Source: Mongoliitalea daihaiensis | GTDB lineage: Bacteria; Bacteroidota; Bacteroidia; Cytophagales; Cyclobacteriaceae | Reading direction: 5' to 3' | Length of the DNA stretch: 64,000 bases | Assembly: GCF_021596945.1 (NCBI RefSeq) | Contig: NZ_CP063779.1 | Location: 2,702,001 to 2,766,000 of the forward strand | Part shown: piece by piece, positions 3,725 to 23,878 of the stretch | How the letters are laid out: the number at the start of each line of letters is the position of its first letter | Numbering within the stretch: the stretch's first letter is position 1 | The notes under the pieces: generated by a model | What the model was told of the DNA's origin: nothing | The model's input: the letters and a program-made list of their open reading frames with translations, nothing else | The model's database searches: none | Made by a program: the position numbers and the translations under genes

Positions 3725-3754
3725 GTATTATTTCCTGTATGGTGCGATTGAGAG
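3725..3754 (-). repeat. Degenerate leader-distal terminal CRISPR repeat
   Basis: This copy starts GTATTATTTCC instead of ATTTCAATTCC, giving four mismatches in the first seven bases, and then matches the consensus to its end. In the transcribed direction the damage is at the 3' end of the last repeat, the usual place for decay at the trailer. It fixes array polarity. Confidence 0.9.
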
Positions 3755-4084
3755 CTTTCCACTCCTTGAAATTCTTCCAATATCCATGCAATTTCAATTC
3801 CTGTATGGTGCGATTGAGAGAGTGCAAAATACTTTTCAACTACGTAATTTAAAACTATTTCAATTCCTGTATGGTGCGATTGAGAGGAAACTACAAAGCT
3901 ATGAATCCGACACAAAAGGTTAATTTCAATTCCTGTATGGTGCGATTGAGAGTGCGGTTTTGGATGGAAGTACTCAATAGAAACGCAAATTTCAATTCCT
4001 GTATGGTGCGATTGAGAGACTCCACCTGCTCTTTTTGCCATGAGCTCTTTACCAATTTCAATTCCTGTATGGTGCGATTGAGAG

Positions 4085-4382
4085 TATGCTCAAACTCTAC
4101 CTAGATACAGGAGATTATTATTTCAATTCCTGTATGGTGCGATTGAGAGAGGAGAGATCAACCGTGTACAGCCAAAAGACTTTGATTTCAATTCCTGTAT
4201 GGTGCGATTGAGAGCGGGCAGCCCACTCTAAACAGGCAGCGCTCCTCGATATTTCAATTCCTGTATGGTGCGATTGAGAGCTTTTTGGATCCAGCAGGAA
4301 CTTTGATAGGTATTTCATTTCAATTCCTGTATGGTGCGATTGAGAGACTTCCCTACTGGAATACTCCTGTAGCTGGTCTAGA
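4085..4382 (-). repeat. Five-spacer block, copy 1
   Basis: Five consecutive spacers with their intervening repeats are identical, as far as I can read, to 6255-6552. The offset is exactly 2170 bases, or 33 repeat units. Spacers on both flanks differ between the copies. Five independent acquisitions in the same order are not credible, so this is a recombination product. Confidence 0.95.
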
Positions 4383-6254
4383 ATTTCAATTCCTGTATGG
4401 TGCGATTGAGAGTCCGAGGTGTTTAATCTGGTAGGTGATCATATTTACCATTTCAATTCCTGTATGGTGCGATTGAGAGTCCATTCTTTTGTTGAGATCA
4501 TGTTTACAATTTCCGATTTCAATTCCTGTATGGTGCGATTGAGAGAATCATTGAATTCGTAAAAATGCACGCCGTAAAAATATTTCAATTCCTGTATGGT
4601 GCGATTGAGAGGCTGAATTCTTCCGATACCTAATCTAAGGTAATTCCATTTCAATTCCTGTATGGTGCGATTGAGAGCATGCTTTCCCCTGGAACAAAGC
4701 GCCGTGAAACAGAATTTCAATTCCTGTATGGTGCGATTGAGAGAGTAGAAAAAACTTCTATCAATTGCCTTATTATTATATTTCAATTCCTGTATGGTGC
4801 GATTGAGAGTATTTGATTGTCAAGGACTTTGATAGCTTTTATCATATTTCAATTCCTGTATGGTGCGATTGAGAGATGTTAATTTCTCCAAATTGGTTAA
4901 TTTCAAATAAATTTCAATTCCTGTATGGTGCGATTGAGAGTGTAGAAATAATCAATATTGAATGCTACATAATTGCATTTCAATTCCTGTATGGTGCGAT
5001 TGAGAGAATTGTTTTGTTTCAAAAAATCCAATTGCGTACTTTATTTCAATTCCTGTATGGTGCGATTGAGAGATTTATTCATATACATAATAGCTGCAAA
5101 CGAAACTAATTTCAATTCCTGTATGGTGCGATTGAGAGTTGAATGCAATCTATTCTATTGATACGTACTTTCCATTTCAATTCCTGTATGGTGCGATTGA
5201 GAGTGCGGTCGAAAAAATTGCTTTTTGTGTGGCTGATCAATTTCAATTCCTGTATGGTGCGATTGAGAGAAAGTTAGTTTCTATTTCATCCGCTATTTCT
5301 TTTACATTTCAATTCCTGTATGGTGCGATTGAGAGCGTTGAATGAAATCCTTAAGCAGATCAGAACTTCCAATTTCAATTCCTGTATGGTGCGATTGAGA
5401 GTTAAGCTGAGTGTCATATCAGGGATTGTTTCACTATTTCAATTCCTGTATGGTGCGATTGAGAGTGAAGGTAATAAACAATATGCCTACAAAGATCAAG
5501 CATTTCAATTCCTGTATGGTGCGATTGAGAGTGAACTAAGATGATAAAGGAACTAGTTGCAAAGATATTTCAATTCCTGTATGGTGCGATTGAGAGAAAT
5601 CATTTTCGGGTAGTTGATCATTTTCGTTTGTATTTCAATTCCTGTATGGTGCGATTGAGAGTGAAGATTTTGCTACAATTCAAGATTCTAGTTTTTAATT
5701 TCAATTCCTGTATGGAGCGATTGAGAGGTTAATCGGTGCTTCAGCAGCCGATATTACAGACAGATTTCAATTCCTGTATGGTGCGATTGAGAGTAAGTTC
5801 AAGTATTACACTGAGAAACTTAGAAAGATATTTCAATTCCTGTATGGTGCGATTGAGAGGTTGACCATTGCTCGTTTGATGGAGAATCTACCCTATTTCA
5901 ATTCCTGTATGGTGCGATTGAGAGTGTCATTGTAGATGTTTCAAATCCCCCAACTGTTAGATTTCAATTCCTGTATGGTGCGATTGAGAGCTTGCAGGAG
6001 GCAGGACTTAACCCGAATCTCATCTAATTTCAATTCCTGTATGGTGCGATTGAGAGCCGAATCAAATTGCCTACTAATCTACCGCCTTCCTTATTTCAAT
6101 TCCTGTATGGTGCGATTGAGAGGACCTGAAAACGTGACTTTTGATCCCTCTCAGGTTGATTTCAATTCCTGTATGGTGCGATTGAGAGTTGCGAGGATTC
6201 ACGCAATAGAAACGAATCAAGACAATTTCAATTCCTGTATGGTGCGATTGAGAG

Positions 6255-6552
6255 TATGCTCAAACTCTACCTAGATACAGGAGATTATTATTTCAATTCC
6301 TGTATGGTGCGATTGAGAGAGGAGAGATCAACCGTGTACAGCCAAAAGACTTTGATTTCAATTCCTGTATGGTGCGATTGAGAGCGGGCAGCCCACTCTA
6401 AACAGGCAGCGCTCCTCGATATTTCAATTCCTGTATGGTGCGATTGAGAGCTTTTTGGATCCAGCAGGAACTTTGATAGGTATTTCATTTCAATTCCTGT
6501 ATGGTGCGATTGAGAGACTTCCCTACTGGAATACTCCTGTAGCTGGTCTAGA
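6255..6552 (-). repeat. Five-spacer block, copy 2
   Basis: Second copy of the block at 4085-4382, same order and orientation. With flanking repeats the identity spans about 358 bases. It is consistent with tandem duplication of a 33-unit segment followed by loss of most of the second copy. Confidence 0.95.
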
Positions 6553-9500
6553 ATTTCAATTCCTGTATGGTGCGATTGAGAGGAAGAGATATGGATTAAC
6601 CCTGCAAACAATGATGTTATTTCAATTCCTGTATGGTGCGATTGAGAGATCATTGCCATTATCGGTAAAGTACTTGGGTTTTCTATTTCAATTCCTGTAT
6701 GGTGCGATTGAGAGTGTATCTGCATTATTATACCAAGCTAGCGGAGATTTATTTCAATTCCTGTATGGTGCGATTGAGAGTACCAATTTATTGAGCAAAG
6801 AGTATAATAATATTTTATTTCAATTCCTGTATGGTGCGATTGAGAGTAGCCTCTAATTTTCGAACACTCGCCGCCAATCCTTTATTTCAATTCCTGTATG
6901 GTGCGATTGAGAGAACCGCATAAATGAACTGATTTTCCGTCCCTTGAGGATTTCAATTCCTGTATGGTGCGATTGAGAGTTAAACCCCTTTCAAGTTTAC
7001 TACGATCGTGAAACAATTTCAATTCCTGTATGGTGCGATTGAGAGATTCACTTTCATATTATTGCCAATAGGTTTTGTAATATTTCAATTCCTGTATGGT
7101 GCGATTGAGAGACTTCCTTATTTTTAATTTCCTGCTCACCGATGTGTATTTCAATTCCTGTATGGTGCGATTGAGAGCATTTTGGAAAGTTCCATCTGAT
7201 TGGCGTCTTATCCATTTCAATTCCTGTATGGTGCGATTGAGAGGATCGCATCGCCCAAATTCCTCTCCCACATAATCCTATTTCAATTCCTGTATGGTGC
7301 GATTGAGAGAACTGCATTTCAACAAACTGTAAACGCCTCATCTAGATTTCAATTCCTGTATGGTGCGATTGAGAGTGCATTTTATGAAATCGGTTTATCA
7401 GTTAGAAATTTATTTCAATTCCTGTATGGTGCGATTGAGAGGGTGCTTCGTCACGCCTTATCAGTCTATCTATCCCTATTTCAATTCCTGTATGGTGCGA
7501 TTGAGAGCATCATGATGATTCAACATGATATTACTTTGAGCTAATTTCAATTCCTGTATGGTGCGATTGAGAGCGCTGCACGGTACCCAACCCCCCAGGA
7601 ACTCCAAGATTTCAATTCCTGTATGGTGCGATTGAGAGTAAGCCTCCATTCATCATCAACTAAGTCTGTAAGGTATTTCAATTCCTGTATGGTGCGATTG
7701 AGAGTTTCGTTTTGATTAATAGCAGGAACATTTAAATTATATTTCAATTCCTGTATGGTGCGATTGAGAGCAGGTGACCAAATTAGTTCTTACACGCTAT
7801 CAGGAAATTTCAATTCCTGTATGGTGCGATTGAGAGATAAATCAAAAGGTTTAGTAAGTCTATTTTACAGAGATTTCAATTCCTGTATGGTGCGATTGAG
7901 AGGAAGAGGCTTGTATCTTATCTGTTGCACTTGAAAATATTTCAATTCCTGTATGGTGCGATTGAGAGAGTACATTTCTTTTTTACTGATTATGAAGTTG
8001 GGTAATTTCAATTCCTGTATGGTGCGATTGAGAGCTTAACAGCGTCTAGCTTTGGGCCTTCATTGAGCCAATTTCAATTCCTGTATGGTGCGATTGAGAG
8101 TTCAAGGGGTAGATTTTAATGGTAAAGGGTATTTATATTTCAATTCCTGTATGGTGCGATTGAGAGAAGCCAAAGAACATCAATTGTCGCAACATCGATT
8201 CTATTTCAATTCCTGTATGGTGCGATTGAGAGATGTTCAAATGGTTTTGCGTGATATGAGCTTACTAAATTTCAATTCCTGTATGGTGCGATTGAGAGAA
8301 AATTATTAGCAGTTGCAAGATTGAAATCAACACTATTTCAATTCCTGTATGGTGCGATTGAGAGTTCAGGAAATATAGCAGGTGCGAGCCGTGCGATTAT
8401 ATTTCAATTCCTGTATGGTGCGATTGAGAGACTCTATAAGCGTATTAATTACCTCCATACTTTGCAATTTCAATTCCTGTATGGTGCGATTGAGAGTCTG
8501 TACGATGTATTGCCTAAAATTGCCGTGCCTAATTTCAATTCCTGTATGGTGCGATTGAGAGGGTCAACAATGTTGCCCAACGACAAAGCATAACCAAATT
8601 TCAATTCCTGTATGGTGCGATTGAGAGTTTCCTGAGCTGTTCTTCGTGGAGTAGATGCTTTAAGATTTCAATTCCTGTATGGTGCGATTGAGAGAAAAGA
8701 CCTATTAAATTCTTTGAAGTATTTAGGATTTCAATTCCTGTATGGTGCGATTGAGAGGACAGAGGGAGCACCGAAATTCATCCCGCATTACTATTTCAAT
8801 TCCTGTATGGTGCGATTGAGAGAAAAATCGCAGGATCTGCTGGTTTACTTTTAGGTGATTTCAATTCCTGTATGGTGCGATTGAGAGTATGTGAAGACCG
8901 CCCGATCGGAAGCAGCCGAAGGAGATTTCAATTCCTGTATGGTGCGATTGAGAGTCCGCCAAAGGAAATATTTGTAGAACCACTAATTCCATTTCAATTC
9001 CTGTATGGTGCGATTGAGAGTCAACGAACTTACCCAAATACCATTCAATATATTTATTTCAATTCCTGTATGGTGCGATTGAGAGTCGGTGTATGGGTAG
9101 TTATGCATTTCCCTGTATTTATTTCAATTCCTGTATGGTGCGATTGAGAGCTTCCGGATACGTGCTGTTAAGCCTTTCGGCATTTTATTTCAATTCCTGT
9201 ATGGTGCGATTGAGAGGCTGGCGCTGCCATGTTTAAGCCTGTTAATACTGCATTTCAATTCCTGTATGGTGCGATTGAGAGTTTGATCGTCTGAGCGCAA
9301 GTCCAGATCGTAGTGTGATTTCAATTCCTGTATGGTGCGATTGAGAGCGAGTGGATTGCCATCGTCTTCCTCTTGAGTGGCCTATTTCAATTCCTGTATG
9401 GTGCGATTGAGAGGCAGCAAGTAGCGGCTAATTTGTCCTTTACGGCGGTATTTCAATTCCTGTATGGTGCGATTGAGAGTCAAAGCGAATAAGGAAGCGT

Positions 9501-12500
9501 TGACAAACCTAGTTAATTTCAATTCCTGTATGGTGCGATTGAGAGTTCGTCAAAGGATTTTAATCCAATCATATTAGTTTCATTTCAATTCCTGTATGGT
9601 GCGATTGAGAGCAGCCATTTACCAAATGGGCGGTGTAGTATTATCTGATTTCAATTCCTGTATGGTGCGATTGAGAGCAGAGCCTTCCATCATCTTTACT
9701 TCTTTGATAATGTATTTCAATTCCTGTATGGTGCGATTGAGAGTTTTCCACCAATTCAAGTTTTCCAAGCCTAAGCAATATTTCAATTCCTGTATGGTGC
9801 GATTGAGAGCTCGCAAGAATAAGCCATGCTATAAGGATGTATTCTATTTCAATTCCTGTATGGTGCGATTGAGAGAACATTAAATATCTAGGTTACAATC
9901 AAGCAAGTTTATTTCAATTCCTGTATGGTGCGATTGAGAGAAAGCCACAGAGATGGAGCTTTTAAGTTTTAGACTTATTTCAATTCCTGTATGGTGCGAT
10001 TGAGAGCCTCTTGCACTTGAGCATTAGCATCTTCCGCTCTATATTTCAATTCCTGTATGGTGCGATTGAGAGATTTTTTTCTTGCGCTGGATTTTAGCCT
10101 CCAATTTGATTTCAATTCCTGTATGGTGCGATTGAGAGTTAAACCCTACTGCTGTAACAGGAAAGTCTTGTGATATTTCAATTCCTGTATGGTGCGATTG
10201 AGAGGATGCAATCCACAAGGCTTCAAACGAGTTTATTAAGATTTCAATTCCTGTATGGTGCGATTGAGAGTCTAATTCTGTTAATACCTCACTTATTAGC
10301 GGTGATATTTCAATTCCTGTATGGTGCGATTGAGAGATTGAATCCTGTAACATTAAATGAAGGTTTGGCTTTATTTCAATTCCTGTATGGTGCGATTGAG
10401 AGATAAAAGGCTTGATATTGAGATTTATGCTCACTAAATTTCAATTCCTGTATGGTGCGATTGAGAGAGTCTAAGCCGATCACAAGAACTGAAAGCATAT
10501 TAAATTTCAATTCCTGTATGGTGCGATTGAGAGACCAAACACATGAGTTGTTTCATTGGATGTAATTGAATTTCAATTCCTGTATGGTGCGATTGAGAGT
10601 TTCCAATAAACCGACTTTCTTTCAGTGCTTTCGCTATTTCAATTCCTGTATGGTGCGATTGAGAGCCGATTCGGTCGCCCATTGATTAGCGCTCTGTTGC
10701 TATTTCAATTCCTGTATGGTGCGATTGAGAGTAAATACAGAAACGACATGTACTTATGATTCAATTATTTCAATTCCTGTATGGTGCGATTGAGAGTTAA
10801 TAGAAAAAATCAATTTGACATTCTTTGTAATAATTTCAATTCCTGTATGGTGCGATTGAGAGCTTAAAAGTTGCATAAGTGTTATCCAATTCAACCAAAT
10901 TTCAATTCCTGTATGGTGCGATTGAGAGTATTCTTTGCACATCGGTTTATAAGCTCGTTTCGTATTTCAATTCCTGTATGGTGCGATTGAGAGAGTTACT
11001 TTAACTCTATGCTTCACAGGGGAGATCAGATTTCAATTCCTGTATGGTGCGATTGAGAGCAAAAAAAGGTGAAGAAATTGCAAGCCGTTCAAGTTATTTC
11101 AATTCCTGTATGGTGCGATTGAGAGCCGCCAAAGGAAATATTTGTAGAACCGCTAATTCCATTTCAATTCCTGTATGGTGCGATTGAGAGTAACGGTCGA
11201 TGATGGTAATTCACAGTTGCCAATTAATTTCAATTCCTGTATGGTGCGATTGAGAGTCTAATCTTGAAACTATCTTTAACTGTACTCTTGAATTTCAATT
11301 CCTGTATGGTGCGATTGAGAGCGTAACTCCACAGGCAGTCAGGAAGCAATTAGCACTATTTCAATTCCTGTATGGTGCGATTGAGAGATTGAGTGACGGC
11401 ATTAACGGTTATGTCCGTTGTTAATTTCAATTCCTGTATGGTGCGATTGAGAGCTTCAATGGCTTTTTTTTTGTCTCGCTTTCAGGTTCATTTCAATTCC
11501 TGTATGGTGCGATTGAGAGCCTGTAGCTTGAATGCTCGTCTGAGATCGGTAATAGATTTCAATTCCTGTATGGTGCGATTGAGAGTCTTGTCCTATTCCA
11601 GGTCCTCCACCAGTGATCTTATTTCAATTCCTGTATGGTGCGATTGAGAGTGGTTACTGCTGCCTTTACTCCTTTGGTGATCAAAGATTTCAATTCCTGT
11701 ATGGTGCGATTGAGAGTATTAAATCGGTTTCAGTTGCTGCTTTTGCTAGTATATTTCAATTCCTGTATGGTGCGATTGAGAGCAAGATGAAAAACGTTAA
11801 TTCAATCTTAACTATATATTTCAATTCCTGTATGGTGCGATTGAGAGAGGAATTAAGGCATTTGAATCAAAATGGATAGTTCTATTTCAATTCCTGTATG
11901 GTGCGATTGAGAGTTTAAGTTGTGTCATGAAGGGGAGAGAAGCAGATGAATTTCAATTCCTGTATGGTGCGATTGAGAGCAGAGACATCGAAAAAGGTAA
12001 TTCTAATTATTTTAAATTTCAATTCCTGTATGGTGCGATTGAGAGAAAGTTGATTTTTTTTAGTAGTTGGCAAGTTGGACTATTTCAATTCCTGTATGGT
12101 GCGATTGAGAGAATATCAATTTTGATATAGTGACTAAGTTCCCTAGATTTCAATTCCTGTATGGTGCGATTGAGAGCAAAATTGAAGCGGATGTAATGGT
12201 TGATACAGTTGAATTTCAATTCCTGTATGGTGCGATTGAGAGAAAATTGGCAATCGGTATTTGCTCCGATGCAATCAAATTTCAATTCCTGTATGGTGCG
12301 ATTGAGAGCATATCAGGCTAATTTCTCCCCACATACCATGTATAATTTCAATTCCTGTATGGTGCGATTGAGAGTTCTACCACGACATCTGAAATATCTA
12401 CATCTGTCAAATTTCAATTCCTGTATGGTGCGATTGAGAGGATGCGATTCACAAGGCTTCAAACGAGTTCATCAAGATTTCAATTCCTGTATGGTGCGAT

Positions 12501-14407
12501 TGAGAGTATGCAAACAGTTAGAACCTTACAAGCATCTTTCTATTTCAATTCCTGTATGGTGCGATTGAGAGTTAGCGGTATTCTTACTGAGAGATCGGGC
12601 GATCATATTTCAATTCCTGTATGGTGCGATTGAGAGATGCGATTCACAAGGCTTCAAACGAGTTCATCAAGATTTCAATTCCTGTATGGTGCGATTGAGA
12701 GCAGCTGCAAACGCTCGAATTAGGCATGAACTAAACTATTTCAATTCCTGTATGGTGCGATTGAGAGGAACAGGACTTAAAACAAGATTGGAGCGACATG
12801 CGAATTTCAATTCCTGTATGGTGCGATTGAGAGCAGCGACAGTTAATCGTATTAGCTGCGCTTCCTCTATTTCAATTCCTGTATGGTGCGATTGAGAGCA
12901 CAAACAACATAACCCCACAGGACAATATCCTTATATTTCAATTCCTGTATGGTGCGATTGAGAGAGCGTTAAAACCATACTGATACCCTGTGATTCGATA
13001 TTTCAATTCCTGTATGGTGCGATTGAGAGTTAGTAGAATCAAACGTTACCGTTTACGCATCTGATATTTCAATTCCTGTATGGTGCGATTGAGAGCTTTG
13101 GTTGCTTATCTAACCACTACCCAAGAGGGTAATTTCAATTCCTGTATGGTGCGATTGAGAGGATAGGATAATTACAAAGGCAAAGATGACTTCCTTATTT
13201 CAATTCCTGTATGGTGCGATTGAGAGAACAGAGGCGCTTATTGGAATGGTACTATGAATACAATTTCAATTCCTGTATGGTGCGATTGAGAGTGAGTGAT
13301 CCAACATCTTGGAAAGTTCCATCCGTTATTTCAATTCCTGTATGGTGCGATTGAGAGAATACAAAAAGCATGGAGTATCTACGGACGCCACTTATTTCAA
13401 TTCCTGTATGGTGCGATTGAGAGTGTGAGCCTTCGGGGATGTCGGCATTCCATCCGATTATTTCAATTCCTGTATGGTGCGATTGAGAGGTTGACAAAGA
13501 TATTGTTGAATCCTATCGCACTTACATTTCAATTCCTGTATGGTGCGATTGAGAGCATACGCTCGAATGGTATTACAGCCTCTTTACCGCTATTTCAATT
13601 CCTGTATGGTGCGATTGAGAGTGAGGGAGACGAGCGCACCTATTACATGACCTACTATTTCAATTCCTGTATGGTGCGATTGAGAGCCAAAATGGAAATG
13701 CTATTGCTGCTGGAATTCAATTATTTCAATTCCTGTATGGTGCGATTGAGAGACCGATTCTGAGCGCCTAACTGATAGTTTCAAGGTCATTTCAATTCCT
13801 GTATGGTGCGATTGAGAGATTGACATTCTTTGGAGTATCAACATTTACTAATGCATTTCAATTCCTGTATGGTGCGATTGAGAGCTTCGCATAGGGAGCA
13901 AATATTTAGCAATTGAAAAATTTCAATTCCTGTATGGTGCGATTGAGAGCTTAGATTGGAGGCTTATTTGTGTCCGGCCCATGTAATTTCAATTCCTGTA
14001 TGGTGCGATTGAGAGCCAGAGGTCCTTACGTTTCCGATGAATGTTATAAGAATTTCAATTCCTGTATGGTGCGATTGAGAGTGTTGAGATGTATTTGGAC
14101 TACATAGACTTGCATATTTCAATTCCTGTATGGTGCGATTGAGAGAGCGTATCATTCACCTATACAGCAACCCTAACGAAGATTTCAATTCCTGTATGGT
14201 GCGATTGAGAGGTGGTCTTGGAAGCTAGGAGAGATGAATTTATGGACATTTCAATTCCTGTATGGTGCGATTGAGAGCAAAATGGAAACGCTCAGGCTAC
14301 TGGGATTCAATTATTTCAATTCCTGTATGGTGCGATTGAGAGCGCATTTTACAGTCATAACACAAGCCACAAGGGACATTTCAATTCCTGTATGGTGCGA
14401 TTGAGAG

Positions 14408-14612
14408 CCGCCGAAACGACAAACTAAAATAGGGCTTTTTGAATCAATTTGACTGTTTTAGCTAATTAATTTAGTGGTAAAAATGCGTCGACCTTCAATA
14501 GTCAATTTTTTACCCACGTTCGACAACTTTATAATATGATGTTTACCAGTGTTTTATGGAAGGTATGGACCTATAAGCTTGGGTATGCCGTGCTTTTGGC
14601 TGCCTTCGACAA
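14408..14612 (-). promoter_or_regulatory. CRISPR leader
   Basis: A 205-base A+T-rich, non-coding stretch lies between the leader-proximal repeat and the cas2 stop. It should hold the array promoter and the signals that guide spacer integration. The element TTCGACAACT occurs twice in direct orientation, at 14520-14529 and 14605-14614, the second touching the cas2 stop codon. I could not assign a clear TAnnTTTG promoter on the minus strand. Confidence 0.75.
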
Positions 14613-14876
14613 CTAAATAAAGGTATCCAAATCATTTCTTTCTTGTCCAATGACCTCTTTATCCAGCCATTTTTCTTCTCTACTCTTAAATACAATTAAA
14701 CTATCTTCCTCGATTTTCATTATCTTCTTGGCGTAGATTATCAACTCTTTGTACTTCACCTCTGTGATCTCTCCTTCAAATACCGAATTCTGAATCCAGT
14801 TCAAGTATTTTCTACAAAGCTTCAGCATCTTGCCAACTCGCTTTTCTCCGATATCGTAGACTAAAATTATGTACAT
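14613..14876 (-). CDS. cas2: CRISPR-associated endonuclease Cas2
   Basis: An 87-residue protein of normal Cas2 size. It opens with a first beta strand and conserved Asp (IILVYDI), followed by a ferredoxin-like pattern of alternating strands and helices. Cas2 forms the central dimer of the Cas1-Cas2 integrase that inserts new spacers at the leader end. The gene starts 26 bases after the cas1 stop in the same direction, and its own stop borders the leader. It closes the adaptation operon cas4-cas1-cas2. Confidence 0.95.
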   Translation of the reverse strand: MYIILVYDIGEKRVGKMLKLCRKYLNWIQNSVFEGEITEVKYKELIIYAKKIMKIEEDSLIVFKSREEKWLDKEVIGQERNDLDTFI

Positions 14877-14902: not shown

Positions 14903-15907
14903 CTACCACCAAATCTTAAATGGCTGATAGGTTTCCATTTCCAGCAGGTGCTTGCTCAGTTTGTAGCATTCTAATTTTACTAAACTTTTGTAACTCACTT
15001 GCTTGTTTAATGTCCGGTGTTTGATGGTTTCATTAAGGCGCTCTTCAAAAGCTCGGATAAAAACTTTTTTGCCAGACTCTTTTAAAATCACTTTGTTGAC
15101 ATGAAAATCAAAATCTTTGGATTGGATTTCTTTTTTGTTTAATACCCTGAATATAATCCTATCCACTAAAATCGGTTTGAAAATCTCCGCTAAATCAAGC
15201 GCCAAAGAATACCTTCTATATCCAGGTTCATGCAAAAAGCTGATTGTAGGGTTTAATTGGGTATGGTAAATTTGATCCAAGCATAATGTATAGCACATCA
15301 TATTCCCAAATGAAATCAAAGCATTAAGTTCATTCATGGGAGGCTGCTTGCTGCGTCCTTCCATTGCATGGTCCTTTATTATAATGTCAAATGCCTGATA
15401 ATACACCTGCCGAATATTCCCTTCTATTCCCATAAGACCTGAGATCGTAGTAGTATTTTCAATTTCTTGCGCATAGAGGTCGATTTTCGTCAGCTGGATT
15501 TCCAAGTCTTTGCCTCGATTATGGTAATATTTCAGGTTTTTGGACATATTGAATGCTGCTCCAGTGATCAACTTCTGGGCAATGGCCATACGCTTACCAG
15601 TATGGAGGTAATGCTGGGTTTGGTTGATTTGCATTTTACCAGCTAGCAAATACTCTTTGGACTGGAAGCTTCCGGTGTAGTGCTCGTAATAATCGAAAAA
15701 GTGCACGCTTATCCCATTTTTTCCTAGAAAATTGTAAAGTGCACTGTTGGCATCTAGTGAACCGAAACAATAGAAATCAGATACTCCCTCTACTGGGATG
15801 TACTTAGGCATACCTTCTTTGCCAGATTCATCTACAGGAGTGAATTTGAGCGTATTGTCCTTTCGACTCATTCGTCCAGGATTAAAAAGATAATAGGTCT
15901 TTTTCAT
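14903..15907 (-). CDS. cas1: CRISPR-associated integrase Cas1 (type I-B group)
   Basis: A 334-residue Cas1 with an N-terminal beta-rich domain (about 1-80) and a helical catalytic domain. The metal ligands expected in Cas1 are visible: Glu162 in GIEGNIRQ, His226 in SFLHEPGY, and an acidic residue at Asp238 or Glu241 in ALDLAEIFKP. The Glu-His spacing of 64 residues is the same as in characterised Cas1 proteins. It catalyses spacer integration together with Cas2. It lies 58 bases after cas4 and 26 before cas2, so the three are probably one transcript. The gene looks intact, in keeping with the recent-looking leader-proximal spacers. Confidence 0.96.
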   Translation of the reverse strand: MKKTYYLFNPGRMSRKDNTLKFTPVDESGKEGMPKYIPVEGVSDFYCFGSLDANSALYNFLGKNGISVHFFDYYEHYTGSFQSKEYLLAGKMQINQTQHYLHTGKRMAIAQKLITGAAFNMSKNLKYYHNRGKDLEIQLTKIDLYAQEIENTTTISGLMGIEGNIRQVYYQAFDIIIKDHAMEGRSKQPPMNELNALISFGNMMCYTLCLDQIYHTQLNPTISFLHEPGYRRYSLALDLAEIFKPILVDRIIFRVLNKKEIQSKDFDFHVNKVILKESGKKVFIRAFEERLNETIKHRTLNKQVSYKSLVKLECYKLSKHLLEMETYQPFKIWW

Positions 15908-15965: not shown

Positions 15966-16481
15966 TTATAGTTCATATTCCTCTCCGGCATAGCAAAAAT
16001 CGTGGTAGCTACATTTTTTGCAGATTGATTTTTTTAATAATGGAGGGCAGTCATACTGATGAGTGATAGCAGAACATTCGCTTTTCCATTTTTCTACTTC
16101 AGCCAAATCTCCTTCGTCCCAATCGACGATTTGTCGTTGTTTCATTTTTGGGTATTCAAGGATGGCAGAGGGATTTTCTATGCCATTTTTGATCAATATA
16201 TAGAGGTAGTATTTTACTTGGGCAAAATGTGCATGCTCTACCTTATCGGATTTTTTTACTTCATGAATCACTTGATTTTTGGCATCATAGTAATCGATTT
16301 TGATACCATCCAGCTCGAGTTCTGTGTATTTTCTCGCTCTGTCCAAATAGGTGGTCTCAGCAATTAGTTTTCCTTCAGCCACAATTTGAGAGGTATGTTC
16401 CATTTGGATTCCATTGGCAAATAGCCAAAGTTTCCTATGACAGGTGTGGAGGTAAGCAATATGTGTTCCGGTGATGTTCAT
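15966..16481 (-). CDS. cas4: CRISPR-associated exonuclease Cas4
   Basis: A 171-residue Cas4 of the RecB-like nuclease fold. Four cysteines for a 4Fe-4S cluster are visible: Cys14 in HTCHRKLW, and a C-terminal CKKC plus Cys163 (pattern C-X2-C-X5-C). The nuclease motif includes an Asp in the DGIKIDYYD region and the E-V-K core of IHEVKKS. Cas4 trims and orients prespacers by PAM before Cas1-Cas2 integrates them. It is the first gene of the adaptation unit and is separated from cas7 by 441 bases holding a strong terminator. Confidence 0.94.
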   Translation of the reverse strand: MNITGTHIAYLHTCHRKLWLFANGIQMEHTSQIVAEGKLIAETTYLDRARKYTELELDGIKIDYYDAKNQVIHEVKKSDKVEHAHFAQVKYYLYILIKNGIENPSAILEYPKMKQRQIVDWDEGDLAEVEKWKSECSAITHQYDCPPLLKKSICKKCSYHDFCYAGEEYEL

Positions 16482-16922: not shown

Positions 16923-17996
16923 TTAAGCGATTTGGTTTTCGTAATCAAAGGCAGACATTTTATCAATTAGCGCTTGTTCTGCACGGTCAAGGGCATCAGC
17001 TGTTTCTCCCTTAGTATGAATAAAACCTCCTGCTTGAAGCGAAATAAATGTTTCTACTCCATTCAGATTTTCATCAATAATTGGATCAGCTTTTCGCGAA
17101 TCTTCTTCTGATAACTTGGCTCGAATACTTCCTGCAATCAAATTGGCATTATCACTAATGGAGACGGCGAGGGTGTCCATTAAGCTAAAGGTTCTAGATT
17201 GGTTAGAAGTGATTCGCCAGTTAATTATAGCATGCGCCAAACCTTTGATCCATTCTTCCCTTATTGATTTAGGAGCGACTAGGCAAGGACCAAACACATT
17301 TTTGGATTCAATCCAGCCTTCCTCTTTCAGTTTGGCTATTGTAGCATCTGCCATCTCCGGCTCCAACTGATTGGTGCTAACAGAAAAAAGTCTCCTCAAA
17401 TCAATTGCAATGTCAAATACGAAGAGGCCTGTTGCCCTTTCAGCAGGATTCAGCCATTTTCTTCCTAGGCTTCTATCTGTATTTCCTTCGGTTTTCAAAA
17501 CGATATCGATTTCTTCGTCAGTTAGAATATTCCCTTTATCATCCCGAATAATCACGGCATTATTCGAGCGTTCACTTCTGTCAAACGAGCCAGCTTCTCC
17601 TCCGTTGGAGTCTAATCCAGCTAATAATGGGTGTAATGCCCTCATGGCAGAAATGGACAGAGGACTTCTTCTTTTTAGCGTTCTTTCTCCACCACCTTTT
17701 GAAGCTTTCATCCAGCCTCCAAATAGTTGATCGGCATATGTAGGGTCACATGTTCCATAAACCTCTCCTTCTTTAAGTTTCTTCTGTTTGTCTACCTCAA
17801 ACAGAAAGGTCGTAGGCGACGGGATTTGGTCAATCGCCTCGCAAAGGGCGTCAATCAATGAACGCTTTACCTGTTGTCCACTGGAAAAAGGAATTCTCTT
17901 GTTAAACTGAACATCATAGTAGTACTTTTGCCCATTGGCCACATTGAAAACGGTGTGCTCAGCTCTCTTTAAAGTTCTTATATAAATAGTATTCAT
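16923..17996 (-). CDS. cas7: Cas7-family Cascade backbone protein (type I-B)
   Basis: A 357-residue protein with the Cas7 signature SSGQQVKRSLIDAL near residues 38-51, where Cas7 proteins have a conserved S-x-Q-x-x-(R/K)R segment. A Gly-rich loop (SKGGGERTLKRRSP, about 99-112) and a second-half FVFDIAIDL strand also fit the RAMP-like fold. Cas7 polymerises along the crRNA spacer to form the Cascade filament. It is the last gene of the effector operon, 17 bases after cas8 and directly before a terminator. Assignment to the DevR/Cst2 branch rather than Csh2 is inference: the NGDP motif typical of Csh2 is not seen. Confidence 0.85.
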   Translation of the reverse strand: MNTIYIRTLKRAEHTVFNVANGQKYYYDVQFNKRIPFSSGQQVKRSLIDALCEAIDQIPSPTTFLFEVDKQKKLKEGEVYGTCDPTYADQLFGGWMKASKGGGERTLKRRSPLSISAMRALHPLLAGLDSNGGEAGSFDRSERSNNAVIIRDDKGNILTDEEIDIVLKTEGNTDRSLGRKWLNPAERATGLFVFDIAIDLRRLFSVSTNQLEPEMADATIAKLKEEGWIESKNVFGPCLVAPKSIREEWIKGLAHAIINWRITSNQSRTFSLMDTLAVSISDNANLIAGSIRAKLSEEDSRKADPIIDENLNGVETFISLQAGGFIHTKGETADALDRAEQALIDKMSAFDYENQIA

Positions 17997-18013: not shown

Positions 18014-19330
18014 TTATGATTTCTTTTGTTGGTAAGCGTAATCAAATTTTAAAAGCGTTAAAAAGTAGCCAAATTCCTCGTTGGTCATCAGGTGTACTTC
18101 GTCTTTTAGCGTTTTTAGTGTTTCTAAATCTTCCTCTTCCAGATCAGGGATCATAAGTGTCAATGACTCTATAAATCCCCTTTTGGATTTGGATGTAAAC
18201 ATTTCCTTTTCTACCAGTGTGACTCTTGACATGCCTTTTCCGGTATTTCTATACCGCAAAATGACCTCAGCCAATTTGGGGGTATAGTCTGTGATTTCTT
18301 CTTTGTTTCGTGTTAACATAGCGACTAACCAGGTTTTGTATGCGTGATAATTTATTGTGTCTTCTTCTTTTTTGAAGGTTAAATTTTTTTCCTCAGTCAT
18401 GTATTTTTTTAAACTGTCAGGACGTAAAGCCCGCAAACCAATACTACCTAATTCACAAGCTCGCTTGATATGCATCCCAAAAAGGCTTTCAAATTCCTTT
18501 TTATTGATTTTAAATTCTCCAAACAGTTTCTGATAAACTTCCTTGATATTTCCTCCTGACTTAAGTTGAAATGGGATAAATCCTATCGTTTTATTAGTCT
18601 GCCCGAACCCATACACATAGCCCATCATTTCACGATCAGGGAATTGGGTAGATAGGCTAAAGAATAGTTGACTCCAATTTACTGTGGCAACTTCTGCCAG
18701 ATTAGTATCAACTTTAAAAATTTTCTGATTGGTAAGTTCCGAAAAATCAAAGTCCTCTCGGTACTCTTCAGGATTGAGAGAATAGGTCAACCACTGCCCA
18801 TTCCAAGTGTTAATCTGATTCCCACGAAGCTTTTCTAAAGTAGGGTCGTTCAAATACTTTCGGTAAACCTTCCAGCCTTCAAAGGTGTGTAAGGTGATTT
18901 CAGAATTGTCAAAAAGTATCGTAAAGCCACCAGCAACCGTAATTCCCAGCCCACTGCCGATCCACGAAAGATAAACTTCATCTTCATCCACAGGAATGAT
19001 TACATCACTGACCAAGCCAGAAGTGCTGGCATACTCCTTAGCCTCAGAAGCTGGATATCCCAAAGCAAAACTGGCATCGGGAATTTCATTTCCAGCCTTT
19101 TCAAACAAGTTTACCAGTTTTTCAATCCTTTCATCTACCGAAAGTAAATGTGGTTTTTGCCCACTTTTCATTTGCACAAAAGGAGAATTGGTCACCCATT
19201 GCATGTATTTGGAATGATTATAAAATAATTCCCAGTATTCTAGCTCAAAAAACTCTTTTGGGGAAAGTTCTTTAGCATACTTCTCGTTGTATGCATTTAG
19301 AAATGTTTTACCGATAACTGCTGTGATCAT
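18014..19330 (-). CDS. cas8: Probable Cas8 large subunit (divergent)
   Basis: A 438-residue protein that I assign to Cas8 mainly by position and size: it is the only large unassigned gene among cas3, cas5, cas6 and cas7, and a type I-B Cascade needs a large subunit for PAM reading and Cas3 recruitment. It is shorter than many Cas8b proteins (500-600 residues) and has no Cys-rich zinc finger that I can see. The C-terminal part is helical and acidic (DLEEEDLETLKTLKDEV), as expected for the region fused to the small-subunit function. The start overlaps the cas3 stop by 4 bases (ATGA), implying translational coupling. No catalytic motif is visible. Confidence 0.7.
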   Translation of the reverse strand: MITAVIGKTFLNAYNEKYAKELSPKEFFELEYWELFYNHSKYMQWVTNSPFVQMKSGQKPHLLSVDERIEKLVNLFEKAGNEIPDASFALGYPASEAKEYASTSGLVSDVIIPVDEDEVYLSWIGSGLGITVAGGFTILFDNSEITLHTFEGWKVYRKYLNDPTLEKLRGNQINTWNGQWLTYSLNPEEYREDFDFSELTNQKIFKVDTNLAEVATVNWSQLFFSLSTQFPDREMMGYVYGFGQTNKTIGFIPFQLKSGGNIKEVYQKLFGEFKINKKEFESLFGMHIKRACELGSIGLRALRPDSLKKYMTEEKNLTFKKEEDTINYHAYKTWLVAMLTRNKEEITDYTPKLAEVILRYRNTGKGMSRVTLVEKEMFTSKSKRGFIESLTLMIPDLEEEDLETLKTLKDEVHLMTNEEFGYFLTLLKFDYAYQQKKS

Positions 19331-21474
19331 AATATTTGGTTATTTACATCAAAGTTGTTTTCTCTGATTTTCTTTACATCTAAGCCAATTTCAAAATCAT
19401 ATGCTTTATCAGGTATGATAAAGGGCTTATTTCCTTTTTGTACTTGGTTCATTCCTCTCACCGCAAAATACCTTACTGGAATCTCTAGCTCTAGTCTCTT
19501 TTCAAAATCAGTATTTTCATACATCTCCAAATCTCCTTCACAAATACAGGATACACTGTCTATTTCGAGTAATTCAAATAGAATGGACTTGCTTCTGTGA
19601 GTAAGTTTGTCAATGGTAATTCTGCCATCAGATTTGAATACAGCATGTTCTTCTATATCCATAAAATCAATCTCTGGAAATACATAGTCAATTTTACCTT
19701 GCAAATCCCTTTCCTTTAAAACCTGGCTATCCTCTAAAACTTCATAGGATCTTTTAAGCACTTCCAAATCATAAGGCAAGGCATCGTTTTTATTTTCTGG
19801 AGGTGCGATTATATAGATGGGTTTGGTTTTCCCTATAGTGTCCTTGGTTCTTTTTCTGTTTACTCTACCAAAGCGCTGTATCATAGCATCGATAGGTGCT
19901 GTCTCAGTTACCATAAGGTCAAAACTGATATCCAGACTTACTTCTACGATCTGAGTAGATACGACAATACATGCCTTGGTAGAAGTATTGAATTCACCGT
20001 TTGGATTTCCGTCCTCATCCAAGCCTAGTAGTTGTTTCTCCTTAAAATTTCTATCGCCTCTTTTAAAGCGACTGTGGAGCAAAAGGATTGGGATTTCGGG
20101 ATACATTACTTTTAATTGGTCATAGGCTTCCTGCGCTCTTGCGACACGGTTAAAGACTACCAAATTTTTTTTATCTTCTTCAATGGCTTGGCTGATTTTT
20201 GGCAAACTCTCTTCAAATGAATTGATTTTGTATAAGGTATGTCTATCAAATTCATCCAACTCTTCGAGGGTCAGTTTCTCTAACAAAATATCCTCACCCA
20301 ATTCTTCTACTATTTTCTGATATAGTTTTGTAGGCATGGTGGCCGTACCTATATGAATGGAGCAGTCAAGCTCCTTAAGGATCTGAACCAATTTCAATAC
20401 GATTGCTTGGGATATCCCAGTGTAGGTATGGATTTCATCTAAAATGAAATCACAGCCTTTTAAATCTAACAGCATGGCTTCATAACCTTTCATTCCAAAG
20501 GCAATGGCTGCTAGTTGATGGGGAGTTAGAATTTTAATTGCTGAACCGAAAAGTGGTTGTAAGACACTTTCCTCTTCTTTACCATTTTGTCTGACGACCA
20601 TGGAAGCAGAATGGAGAACTCGTATATCCAAGTCAGGATTGTCCATTTTTAGGTCCATGTACACCCGTTTAAACATGGCGTTGATAGAAGCCTGAAACGG
20701 AAGAGTATAAAAAACCCGTCCCTGGGTTCTTTTGAAAAGATAGTCTGTTTTGCCTGCACCTGTACTGGCCACAACCAAGGTATGTTTCTTTGATGAAGCC
20801 GTTTCTTTAAAGGAAAGCGGATAAAGTGGATGTGAACGGTTATAGAATGAAAGATTTGGTGTCTTAAAAGCCTTGCTAAGCTTTTGCTCTGTATCATTAA
20901 TCAAAGCCGAAGCAAAGTGATCTGATCCCATTAGCAAGCCTCTCCACTTTGAATACCCTCTGGTTTTCGTTTGCTTTTTGCAATAAGATATAGCGTATGA
21001 AAGGTTGTGGCGAGCTTCTTTCTCACCAAATGGAGCACACTGTATTCCAATCTCTTGTATTAGTCTAAACGCTTCTGGAGCCCATTGCTCCCAATTACCA
21101 ACATGAAAGTCAATATAGTCATATCCGTTTTCCAAGTCCAGCAACCCTTTGTCTCCAGCATCATTTTTGGCTGATTTATGATGGGCGATAACCATATCCA
21201 ATAAAGCCGAATATTCTGATTCTGGAAACACGGATAAGAAAAGAAGAGAACTTATTTCATGTCTGAATACTTTGCTATTTTGTCCGTTTCCTTTAACTCT
21301 TCTTTGAAACTCAGGGTGAGCCTTTCCCAAATCATGTAGGATTGCACCATTGAATGCTACTAATTCATCCATCTTTAGATAGTTGGCAAATGCTTTTGCG
21401 GCATAGGACACGTGTAAAAGATGATCTTTTAAGGAAGTGTATTCTGGAGCAGATTTGGCAAGAAGATGTTCCAT
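19327..21474 (-). CDS. cas3: Cas3 nuclease-helicase (HD plus DExH)
   Basis: A 715-residue fusion of an HD nuclease and an SF2 helicase. HD motifs: His18/His21, the His47-Asp48 pair in AILHDLGKAH, His98-His99 in IAHHKS, and Asp185 in MGSDHFAS. Helicase motifs: Walker A GAGKT (239-243), DEIH (346-349), and motif VI QRFGRVNR (533-540). When Cascade binds a protospacer, Cas3 nicks and degrades the displaced strand. All motifs are intact, so interference should be possible. The gene overlaps the cas5 stop by 1 base and cas8 by 4. Placing cas3 between cas5 and cas8 differs from the common order with cas3 after cas5 and before cas4. Confidence 0.96.
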   Translation of the reverse strand: MEHLLAKSAPEYTSLKDHLLHVSYAAKAFANYLKMDELVAFNGAILHDLGKAHPEFQRRVKGNGQNSKVFRHEISSLLFLSVFPESEYSALLDMVIAHHKSAKNDAGDKGLLDLENGYDYIDFHVGNWEQWAPEAFRLIQEIGIQCAPFGEKEARHNLSYAISYCKKQTKTRGYSKWRGLLMGSDHFASALINDTEQKLSKAFKTPNLSFYNRSHPLYPLSFKETASSKKHTLVVASTGAGKTDYLFKRTQGRVFYTLPFQASINAMFKRVYMDLKMDNPDLDIRVLHSASMVVRQNGKEEESVLQPLFGSAIKILTPHQLAAIAFGMKGYEAMLLDLKGCDFILDEIHTYTGISQAIVLKLVQILKELDCSIHIGTATMPTKLYQKIVEELGEDILLEKLTLEELDEFDRHTLYKINSFEESLPKISQAIEEDKKNLVVFNRVARAQEAYDQLKVMYPEIPILLLHSRFKRGDRNFKEKQLLGLDEDGNPNGEFNTSTKACIVVSTQIVEVSLDISFDLMVTETAPIDAMIQRFGRVNRKRTKDTIGKTKPIYIIAPPENKNDALPYDLEVLKRSYEVLEDSQVLKERDLQGKIDYVFPEIDFMDIEEHAVFKSDGRITIDKLTHRSKSILFELLEIDSVSCICEGDLEMYENTDFEKRLELEIPVRYFAVRGMNQVQKGNKPFIIPDKAYDFEIGLDVKKIRENNFDVNNQIL

Positions 21475-22058
21475 CAGAAGTTGGTTACGGGTTGTCCTAC
21501 TACTCTAATCCAGCCATACATGGGTTTATTGTTCAGCCTATGATACCCGACTAAAAATGATTTATCATTTTTCCCGAAAACCAACTCGAAACCAGGGAAT
21601 TTATCTTCATCTCCTTCAAATGCTTCTTTGGTAGTTTTGATGATAGAATCTGGATACATTACATCCTCGTTTCTACAAAGGCAAACATGCTGTTTAGCCG
21701 CATTAGATGCATCTTCTTTAGATGTAAAAGCTAGTAATAGGGTCGGGTTTTGTAAAACTCCACGTATCAAGATTGCTTTAGGTCTGTCAAAAAGAAATTC
21801 TTTCCCTTTTCTAGTTGAATTCCAGCCTCTCGTTTGAATTACTTCTTGTTGTCCACTTACTTGATCATAAGACAATCTATGACCGATTATTTTATGGATA
21901 CCTTCATTACCAAGTAATTCTGGAAACAATTTCTTTTCAATTCCCTCCACTATAGATGGAGTTAAAAATTGTTGACTAAATGTTTCACTGTCTCTAACTG
22001 CCGTCCAAGGTTTAATGAAACCAAAGGGGCCAGAATATTTTACTACATAGTATGTCAT
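21474..22058 (-). CDS. cas5: Cas5-family Cascade subunit
   Basis: A 194-residue protein beginning with a strand and the segment KYSGPFGFIKPWTAVRDSET, followed by LTPSIVEGIEKKLFPE. This layout (first strand, Gly-Pro-Phe loop, Ser/Thr-rich segment, then a helix after a Pro-Ser pair) is that of Cas5 proteins, which cap the crRNA 5' handle and contact Cas8. It lies 5 bases after the upstream cas6 and its stop overlaps the cas3 start by one base. Size is at the low end for Cas5. Motif evidence is moderate; context is strong. Confidence 0.78.
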   Translation of the reverse strand: MTYYVVKYSGPFGFIKPWTAVRDSETFSQQFLTPSIVEGIEKKLFPELLGNEGIHKIIGHRLSYDQVSGQQEVIQTRGWNSTRKGKEFLFDRPKAILIRGVLQNPTLLLAFTSKEDASNAAKQHVCLCRNEDVMYPDSIIKTTKEAFEGDEDKFPGFELVFGKNDKSFLVGYHRLNNKPMYGWIRVVGQPVTNF

Positions 22059-22063
22059 ACCTT

Positions 22064-22720
22064 TTATTTTAAAGAGCCAAATCCAATTCCAGTACTATTC
22101 CCAATGCCCACATTCCAAGCGAATTTGAGCTGTTCTTCACTCCCTTCAAGAATCACGGGACAAATACTCGCTCTGCACTTGATGCCATTATAATTGATCA
22201 TCTTGGTACTTGGTTTTTGATATGTAGAGTCAAAATAGACCTTTACACCATTTGGGTCAAGACCTGCCTTTTCGAGTTTCACTTGTAGGGTTTGAGTCAT
22301 ATAAAGCCCTGATTCAGCATCAGAGAATGTATAATGATGCACTCTATCTTCTAATTTCCTCTTAATGAATATGGGGCTGTTTAAGTAAAATCTTTGGATA
22401 GACTCAACTGTTGGTTCAGTCATAATCGATACTTCTTTGACTCTCATTCCAAAATTCAATTCAGGATCATGCTGAATTCCTTTGATAAGTGTTTTAATCA
22501 AAGCTGTATCATAAGAACTGATTTGCCAATAGGCACCATTTTTAAAATCAAAACTTTTTTTATCAATTTTACCACCCATTAGCCACGACAGAGAATACAG
22601 AGAAATATCATCGTGAACATGGTTTTCTCCAAGCCATTTATGGAATGTGCCAACAAGACTTCTTTGATAATCGAAAGGAACTGATTCAGTATTTTGGCTA
22701 AGTTTTATATTTAATCTCAT
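22064..22720 (-). CDS. cas6: Cas6-like crRNA endoribonuclease, copy 1
   Basis: A 218-residue RAMP protein ending in the Gly-rich loop GIGNSTGIGFGSL, the hallmark of Cas6. Near the N-terminus His27 (GTFHKWL) and His34/His36 (ENHVHDD), followed by SLSWLMGG, are candidates for the catalytic histidine. Cas6 cuts the array transcript within each repeat, leaving the 8-base 5' handle. It is the first gene directly coupled to cas5-cas3-cas8-cas7. A second Cas6 lies 171 bases upstream, and the two are only distantly similar by eye. Which one processes this array cannot be told from sequence alone. Confidence 0.85.
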   Translation of the reverse strand: MRLNIKLSQNTESVPFDYQRSLVGTFHKWLGENHVHDDISLYSLSWLMGGKIDKKSFDFKNGAYWQISSYDTALIKTLIKGIQHDPELNFGMRVKEVSIMTEPTVESIQRFYLNSPIFIKRKLEDRVHHYTFSDAESGLYMTQTLQVKLEKAGLDPNGVKVYFDSTYQKPSTKMINYNGIKCRASICPVILEGSEEQLKFAWNVGIGNSTGIGFGSLK

Positions 22721-23677: not shown

Positions 23678-23878
23678 AACTATTATTTTTGTGTAAGGTA
23701 AAAACTGCTTCCATATAAATAAAATTACTGACACAAACTGTCAATATAAAATTCATAAGTCCTGTAAGTTTTAAAAATTAGTTTGTAGTTGCAATACCCT
23801 GATCAGGGTATTTTAATGAATCCAAACGATAATTTTGAGAAATCTCAGAACCAACAGCTTCTGAATCTCTAATTTCAG

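What the first reader, a model, noticed from the sequence alone, without database searches (positions are those of the whole stretch)
10205..12671. Three spacers for one protospacer; the variant differs only at third codon positions
Spacers at 10205-10240, 12441-12476 and 12637-12671 are versions of the same sequence. The first and second differ at positions 6, 9, 30 and 33, all multiples of three. In that frame both read DAIHKASNEFIK, so every change is synonymous. The third equals the second minus one base at the PAM-distal end, while all three share the PAM-proximal end beside the repeat. A copied spacer would not lose exactly one distal base or gain four synonymous changes. This points to repeated, independent capture at the same PAM from diverging relatives of one protein-coding gene, seen in the spacers alone.
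Basis: partly seen in the sequence, partly recalled or inferred. Interest (0 to 1): 0.85.

Follow-up and report, generated by a model that had tools for sequence, protein, structure and literature searches.

The report
Same viral gene captured three times
A bacterium's CRISPR memory holds three spacers cut at the same point of what looks like one protein-coding gene that had meanwhile changed only silently, so the immune system appears to have re-recorded an evolving invader; the principle is known, but here the reading frame and the cutting signal can be read from spacers alone.

Summary
Observation confirmed. The window holds a type I-B array of 163 repeats and 162 spacers. Spacers 10205, 12441 and 12637 share their PAM-side end. 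The first two differ at four third-codon positions; both read DAIHKASNEFIK. No protospacer of it was found in the collections searched.

The pattern recurs. In 40 array loci (2,425 spacers), 26 non-identical same-strand pairs start within one base of each other and 4 are shifted. Of 10 independent pairs with three or more substitutions, 7 are fully synonymous; the null averages 0.32, maximum 3 of 20,000 trials. Closely overlapping spacers give the PAM as YCA, 7 of 7 flanks.

One of five inferred peptides sought in IMG/VR hit (FFPHLFHFGPP): 5 contigs, each within an open frame of about 1,100 codons, primase-like. Spacers match these phages 56 times at 80% identity or more, reversed spacers never; 23 of 56 have YCA.

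Best reading: independent recapture of one protospacer from diverged relatives. The third copy is ambiguous: its missing G equals the repeat's last base. Legionella shows a similar case, so this is a known kind.

The parts
3725..14407 (-). CRISPR array, 163 repeats of 30 bp (+ strand ATTTCAATTCCTGTATGGTGCGATTGAGAG; the leftmost one degenerate), 162 spacers; oldest end left, leader end right
   Evidence: orientation by conserved leader
10205..10240 (-). older spacer of the DAIHKASNEFIK family (36 nt)
12441..12476 (-). newer spacer, same PAM-side start, four synonymous differences at positions 4, 7, 28, 31 counted from the PAM side
12637..12671 (-). third spacer, 35 nt, identical to the second minus one distal G that equals the repeat's last base
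8955..8990 (-). second recapture family, older member (36 nt)
11126..11160 (-). second recapture family, newer member (35 nt), one difference, synonymous in an open frame
13687..13722 (-). third recapture family, older member (QNGNAIAAGIQ); weak match to YadA-like genes on plasmids (E 0.2)
14278..14312 (-). third recapture family, newer member (QNGNAQATGIQ)
7178..7213 (-). older member of a shifted overlapping pair (shift 13; 20 of 23 bases identical)
13293..13327 (-). newer member of the shifted pair; its upstream flank in the partner reads CGCCA (PAM)
4085..4382 (-). five-spacer block, one copy of an exact in-array duplication (contrast case)
6255..6552 (-). other copy of the five-spacer block, spacers identical
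14408..14547 (-). leader side; conserved on the same side of several arrays in relatives
14613..14876 (-). cas2 (Cas2b)
14903..15907 (-). cas1 (Cas1b)
15966..16481 (-). cas4 (Cas4b)
16923..17996 (-). cas7b
18014..19330 (-). cas8b
19327..21474 (-). cas3
21474..22058 (-). cas5b
22064..22720 (-). cas6

Best explanation
A complete type I-B system (Cas1-Cas2-Cas4 adaptation, Cas8b-Cas7-Cas5-Cas3 interference) took a spacer from one YCA-flanked protospacer in a conserved gene of a mobile element. At least 34 insertions later it took the same protospacer again from a relative of that element in which the gene had drifted, within this stretch, only at silent sites; a third spacer was taken from the newer variant, or copied from it. 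Captures are measured from the PAM, so the PAM-side end coincides and the far end varies by a base. Shown: array, orientation, shared PAM-side end, synonymous pattern, YCA in related cases, the same pattern in relatives' arrays. Inferred: that the source is a virus, that this protospacer itself has YCA, that the variants came from separate elements, and that the old spacer, mismatched at positions 4 and 7 of the seed, had lost force so that the new one restored immunity.
For: Four of four differences are third-position and synonymous in an open frame. 7 of 10 independent pairs with at least three substitutions are fully synonymous, 6 of 9 without the window's family; null means 0.32 and 0.28, and 0 of 20,000 shuffles reach the observed numbers. 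15 of 17 strong non-identical pairs of the first 21 loci start at exactly the same PAM-side base, the other two one base apart. In-array mutation cannot supply four changes: one substitution in 4,860 repeat bases (terminal repeat left out), none in the five block-duplicated spacers, P about 1e-10. PAM: 7 of 7 three-base flanks YCA at 85% or more overlap identity; 23 of 56 phage matches against about 3.5% expected. One inferred peptide lies in a long open frame in 5 of 5 contigs hit.
Against: No protospacer for this family in phages or plasmids, IMG/VR by two codon-degenerate patterns (9, 12), 84,980 genomes (13 pattern hits, judged chance; 20, 25), 390 genomes of the order (13), or the five fetched phage contigs (74). 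Hence gene, element and PAM are not seen for this very family. Of five inferred peptides sought in IMG/VR one hit (9, 12, 37, 41, 60, 61), and at that site the contig nearest to one spacer (35 of 36) carries TTA, not YCA (65). 3 of 10 pairs carry amino-acid changes (83). For this family alone the synonymy test gives only p about 0.02 (38). Overlaps under 85% identity show YCA in only 2 of 22 three-base flanks at 70-85% and 0 of 17 below; the 85% cut was set after seeing the data (94). Variants could be paralogues in one element.
Confidence: 0.87

Rival explanations
1. The similar spacers are an in-array duplication that mutated afterwards.
For: Arrays do duplicate blocks: five spacers at 4085-4382 recur exactly at 6255-6552; 84 of 85 block pairs in the first 21 loci are exact, 61 of the 85 being between two contigs of one genome.
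Against: The three spacers are isolated pairs, without duplicated neighbours. Four substitutions in 36 bases against one in 4,860 repeat bases (P about 1e-10), all silent in one frame, are not expected from mutation of a non-coding array.
Confidence: 0.03
2. Only the third spacer (12637) is an in-array copy of the second (12441), which lost one G by slippage in the GG at the repeat-spacer junction.
For: The two are identical over 35 bases, only three units apart, and the lost base equals the repeat's last base.
Against: The spacers between and beside them are not copied. Length variation at the far end is common: 36 of 162 window spacers are 35 nt, and other same-start pairs differ by one base in length in the same way.
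Confidence: 0.35
3. The two variants are paralogous copies of one gene in a single element, so capture reflects gene copies rather than evolving relatives.
For: The 13687/14278 family weakly resembles YadA-like genes (E 0.2), where repeats within one gene are plausible.
Against: All 12 codons of DAIHKASNEFIK keep their residue, as expected between orthologues. In the case with known targets (FFPHLFHFGPP) the full peptide occurs once in each of the five contigs.
Confidence: 0.1
4. Memory-guided update: the old, partly matching crRNA directs re-capture of its own diverged target, rather than the site being an intrinsic hot site.
For: Within arrays there are 23 same-start pairs against 3 shifted same-strand overlaps, while even sampling of YCA sites predicts about 0.8-1.3 shifted per same-start pair at that threshold. 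Across genomes there are 2 same-start pairs (one weak) against 1 shifted.
Against: Cross-genome numbers are tiny. Four of the 23 are adjacent pairs that may be slips. Intrinsic hot sites and the limited length of conserved stretches explain the same excess. Seed mismatches are present in some pairs and absent in others.
Confidence: 0.12

Closest known systems
Legionella pneumophila type I-C spacer pairs on LME-1 (Rao et al. 2016, PMC5071653; sections 12 and 13 read)
   Same: Older and newer spacers of one array on the same or overlapping target, the newer matching better; the authors' interpretation is natural primed acquisition after escape.
   Different: There the target is known, two pairs are shown, and the older member fails by PAM or seed mutation. 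Here the start base is identical, the differences are silent codon changes, and the target was not found.
Clostridioides difficile type I-B adaptation (PMC8406132; passages seen)
   Same: Type I-B with PAM YCN, which includes the YCA found here.
   Different: PAM there is by experiment; here it is read from overlapping spacers and from phage matches.
Spacer duplication within CRISPR arrays (review PMC8047081; passages seen)
   Same: This array also holds an exact five-spacer block duplication.
   Different: The recaptured spacers are isolated, share the PAM-side end, may vary at the far end and differ by silent changes. [quoted passage not shown] I saw no example in the passages shown.

Membership tests
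Type I-B CRISPR-Cas | cas8b, cas7b, cas5b and cas3 effector genes | tested here: met
   PADLOC models Cas8b E 1.2e-175, Cas7b 8.3e-173, Cas5 4.4e-87, Cas3b 0
Type I-B CRISPR-Cas | own adaptation genes cas1, cas2, cas4 beside the array | tested here: met
   for the 334-aa cas1 product Pfam reports the Cas1 domain only
Type I-B CRISPR-Cas | 5' PAM at the leader-side end of the spacer | tested here: met
   YCA in 7 of 7 close dovetail flanks from five pairs and 23 of 56 phage matches; from relatives' arrays and other spacers of this one, not from the DAIHKASNEFIK family
Independent re-acquisition of one protospacer | differences follow the codon structure of the source, not array mutation | tested here: met
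Independent re-acquisition of one protospacer | protospacers with PAM found in related elements | tested here: inconclusive
   not found for DAIHKASNEFIK, which shows absence from those collections only; found for the cross-genome pair FFPHLFHFGPP, with TCA in two contigs and TTA in three
Primed adaptation | new spacer gained because an old mismatched spacer targets the invader | not testable with these tools
   needs acquisition experiments; order and seed mismatches are compatible only
In-array duplication | identical copies, usually with neighbours | tested here: not met
   10205/12441 differ and are isolated; met only for 4085-4382 = 6255-6552

The most novel reading that the evidence does not exclude
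Memory-guided update: a spacer that matches a diverged relative only in part steers the adaptation machinery back to exactly its own protospacer, so the array rewrites an old entry rather than sampling the invader at random. The signature would be an excess of same-start, silently diverged pairs within arrays but not between genomes.
Probability: 0.12. Interest if true: 0.85.

Novelty: new member of a known kind. Interest (0 to 1): 0.5.

Why it matters
Repeated spacers in one array are commonly put down to duplication. Silent codon differences with a fixed PAM-side end tell re-capture from duplication using the array alone. They can also give the reading frame, the PAM and the purifying selection on genes of unsequenced viruses; one such frame led to real phages here. 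The excess of same-site captures makes it testable whether old memories guide new ones.

Tried and rejected
Protospacer of DAIHKASNEFIK: single spacers against phages gave matches of E 1 or more. Two Microviridae VP2 matches are among them; in the one fetched, the match runs antisense to the annotated gene, and I treat both as chance. Plasmids: 106 records, 15 rows seen, 21-23 bases at E 4. Two codon-degenerate patterns found 0 IMG/VR contigs. A shorter one found 13 places in 84,980 genomes, 19-24 of 36 bases identical, none reading the whole peptide. 390 genomes of the order with up to 3 mismatches: only the window's own three copies. Five fetched phage contigs: no peptide window at 45% or more of the self score.

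Other IMG/VR patterns without a hit: nucleotide patterns for 8955/11126 (28) and the microvirus spacer (27); peptides IGEAIGSGGDII (37), WFGKYRKLRPY (41), LEPTTFATDPV (60). Only FFPHLFHFGPP hit (61). These scans need every codon kept, so a miss says little.

Whole-array searches of phages with relatives' arrays gave few matches: five at E 7 for L030 (36), 12 for L052 (42), none for L063 (43), one for L062 (62), none for L065 (63), one for L049 (64). Stretches of 7.9 kb of L062 and L065 were given, the other arrays whole.

Mutation of an in-array copy, chance similarity and non-coding drift were considered and rejected. A claim that intrinsic hot sites are excluded was dropped: the cross-genome numbers are too small. 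Dovetail overlaps under 85% identity were not used for the PAM; they give YCA in 2 of 22 (70-85%) and 0 of 17 (lower) three-base flanks, like chance matches. Two close pairs one base apart show a single flank base, A and T.

Left out of the synonymy count: pairs with fewer than three substitutions, 10205/12637 (same family as 10205/12441), the two low-complexity adjacent pairs of L105, and the adjacent L090 pair found later (8 substitutions, 3 amino-acid changes), which would make it 7 of 11.

Full report
THE OBSERVATION. The window carries 163 repeats and 162 spacers between 3725 and 14407; 161 repeats are exact. The genome is one contig of 4.8 Mb, which no call names. The three spacers are where the finding puts them. 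The first and second differ at four places, all third positions of DAIHKASNEFIK; the only other frame open in both has four amino-acid changes. Alignment scores are 28, 27 and 35, whereas the best score against reversed spacers, among 1,590, is 16. The third copy lacks one G next to the repeat, which itself ends in G, so the lost base is not informative.

THE SYSTEM. The genes to the right, on the minus strand, are cas6, cas5b, cas3, cas8b, cas7b, cas4, cas1, cas2, by profile. The stretch between cas2 and the array is conserved on the same side in several arrays of relatives (scores 150, 98, 90 and 80 for L030, L055, L050 and L049; shuffles at most 30; about half of the 20 loci score no higher than shuffles). 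So the right end is the leader end, spacers grow younger to the right, and the PAM side of each spacer is its right end on the + strand. That is the end the three spacers share.

MORE CASES IN THE SAME ARRAY. Two further families share the PAM-side end: 8955/11126, one silent change, and 13687/14278, six changes in QNGNA.A.GIQ with two amino-acid changes; in both the length differs by one at the far end. One pair, 7178/13293, overlaps with a shift of 13. For contrast, the five spacers at 4085-4382 recur exactly at 6255-6552, a real duplication.

RELATIVES. A DNA search matched 28 of 148 genomes of the family. I fetched 20 stretches, which with the window give 1,590 spacers. Strong same-strand pairs number 117: 85 lie in blocks, 84 of them exact, and 32 are isolated. 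Non-identical strong pairs number 17; 15 start at the same PAM-side base and two one base apart. Examples from the same-genus genome: IGEAIGSGGDII with six of six changes silent, and GSNLKDLSKSK with five of five silent. Of 10 independent pairs with at least three substitutions, 7 are fully synonymous in an open frame. Moving the same substitutions to other positions gives 0.32 on average, at most 3 in 20,000 trials. Without the window's own family it is 6 of 9 against 0.28. For the window's family alone p is about 0.02, so the strength lies in the replication.

A second search matched 28 of 390 genomes of the order. Twenty stretches added 835 spacers from 19 of them; one (L100, 3 spacers) was dropped because its orientation was not called. 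All told, 40 loci and 2,425 spacers give 26 non-identical pairs that start within one base of each other: 23 within arrays, 1 within a genome, 2 across genomes (one weak). Shifted same-strand pairs number 3 within arrays and 1 across; opposite-strand ones number 14, many weak. The 23 include three pairs of the window's triple and four adjacent pairs (L066, L090, two of low complexity in L105) that may be array slips.

THE PAM. Where one spacer's PAM-side end lies inside another spacer, the partner shows the flank. At overlap identity of 85% or more the flanks are GACCA, CTCCA, AACCA, TCTCA, TCCCA, ATCCA and CGCCA, 7 of 7 YCA from five pairs. Weaker overlaps give YCA in 2 of 22 three-base flanks (70-85%) and 0 of 17 (lower); I set the 85% cut after seeing the data.

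THE METHOD TESTED. The pair L030 757 / L052 6178, from two genomes, has four changes, all silent in FFPHLFHFGPP. A codon-degenerate pattern for that peptide hit 5 IMG/VR contigs of 39-44 kb. The pattern fixes the peptide; the test is that in 5 of 5 it lies inside an open frame of 1,105-1,144 codons, at a stretch that continues GPPGTGKST, a Walker A motif (label recalled). Of the two products scanned, both match a PHROG of DNA primases (E about 1e-24) and, better, one of unknown function. The three bases before the site are TCA in two contigs and TTA in three; the change is a silent one in a Phe codon. Four other inferred peptides gave no hit. Mapping 1,512 distinct spacers of the first 21 loci on these contigs gives 56 matches at 80% identity or more, from 23 spacers, against 0 for reversed spacers; 23 of 56 have YCA (matches of one spacer to several contigs are not independent), and 14 of 23 spacers have it in at least one contig. 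Three window spacers (7244, 8758, 8888) fall in that frame. So a frame and a PAM read from spacers alone point to real phages that this host group meets. DAIHKASNEFIK is not in them.

MECHANISM. Independent capture at a fixed PAM explains the shared end, the far-end length variation and the silent differences. In-array mutation does not: P about 1e-10 at the repeats' rate. That the old spacer's mismatches at positions 4 and 7 weakened it, and that recapture restored immunity, is inferred from general knowledge of type I seeds. Same-start pairs exceed shifted ones well beyond the roughly 1:1 expected if YCA sites were sampled evenly. Hot sites, short conserved stretches or guidance by the old spacer may each explain that.

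LITERATURE. Rao et al. 2016 (PMC5071653, sections 12 and 13 read) report two pairs of spacers in one array on overlapping regions, the newer matching better, and spacers of the same or overlapping sequence within arrays. C. difficile I-B uses YCN (PMC8406132, passages). Sulfolobus work shows mismatches between older spacers and evolving viruses, enriched near the PAM (PMC6452263, passages). The review PMC8047081 (passages) says that repeated blocks were presumed duplications and that a second encounter could conceivably lead to the same spacer twice. In the listings of my searches of the held library I saw none that uses silent codon differences between spacers of one array to prove recapture; these are listings and abstract starts, and subscription journals are mostly missing.

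VERDICT. It is a clear, replicated case of a known process, with a useful way of reading it.

Noticed in passing
window 7112-7147: Spacer matches Microviridae major capsid genes (29 of 29 bases in Sigmofec virus UA08Rod_7382, E 1e-3; 33 of 36 over the whole spacer); by eye it reads in the capsid frame. The host group probably meets microviruses.
   Followed up: partly
window 7244-7279, 8758-8792, 8888-8924: Three window spacers fall in the 1.1-kaa primase-like frame of a group of about 40-kb phages (IMG/VR contigs behind L071-L075) that spacers from other arrays of the family also target.
   Followed up: yes
window 4085-4382 and 6255-6552: Exact duplication of a five-spacer block within the array, 33 units apart.
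   Followed up: partly
L071-L075, bases before the FFPHLFHFGPP site: TCA in two contigs and TTA in three, differing by a silent change in a Phe codon: a possible silent PAM loss. The contig nearest to the L052 spacer (35 of 36) has TTA.
   Followed up: no
L050 and L051 (two contigs of one genome): Two array stretches share 61 spacer pairs in blocks: a duplicated array or an assembly effect.
   Followed up: no
window 5794-5829 and L030 1219-1253: Spacers of two species of one genus overlap by 18 of 18 bases, so both probably met related elements.
   Followed up: no
window 22892-23734: A second Cas6-like protein (280 aa) next to the operon's own cas6; the nine further proteins scanned beyond it matched no PADLOC model at E 1e-6.
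   Followed up: partly
L049 5383-5416: Spacer of a related array matches the replication gene of Antarctic microvirus CAA_003_V_9 (91% over 34 bases, E 0.05).
   Followed up: no
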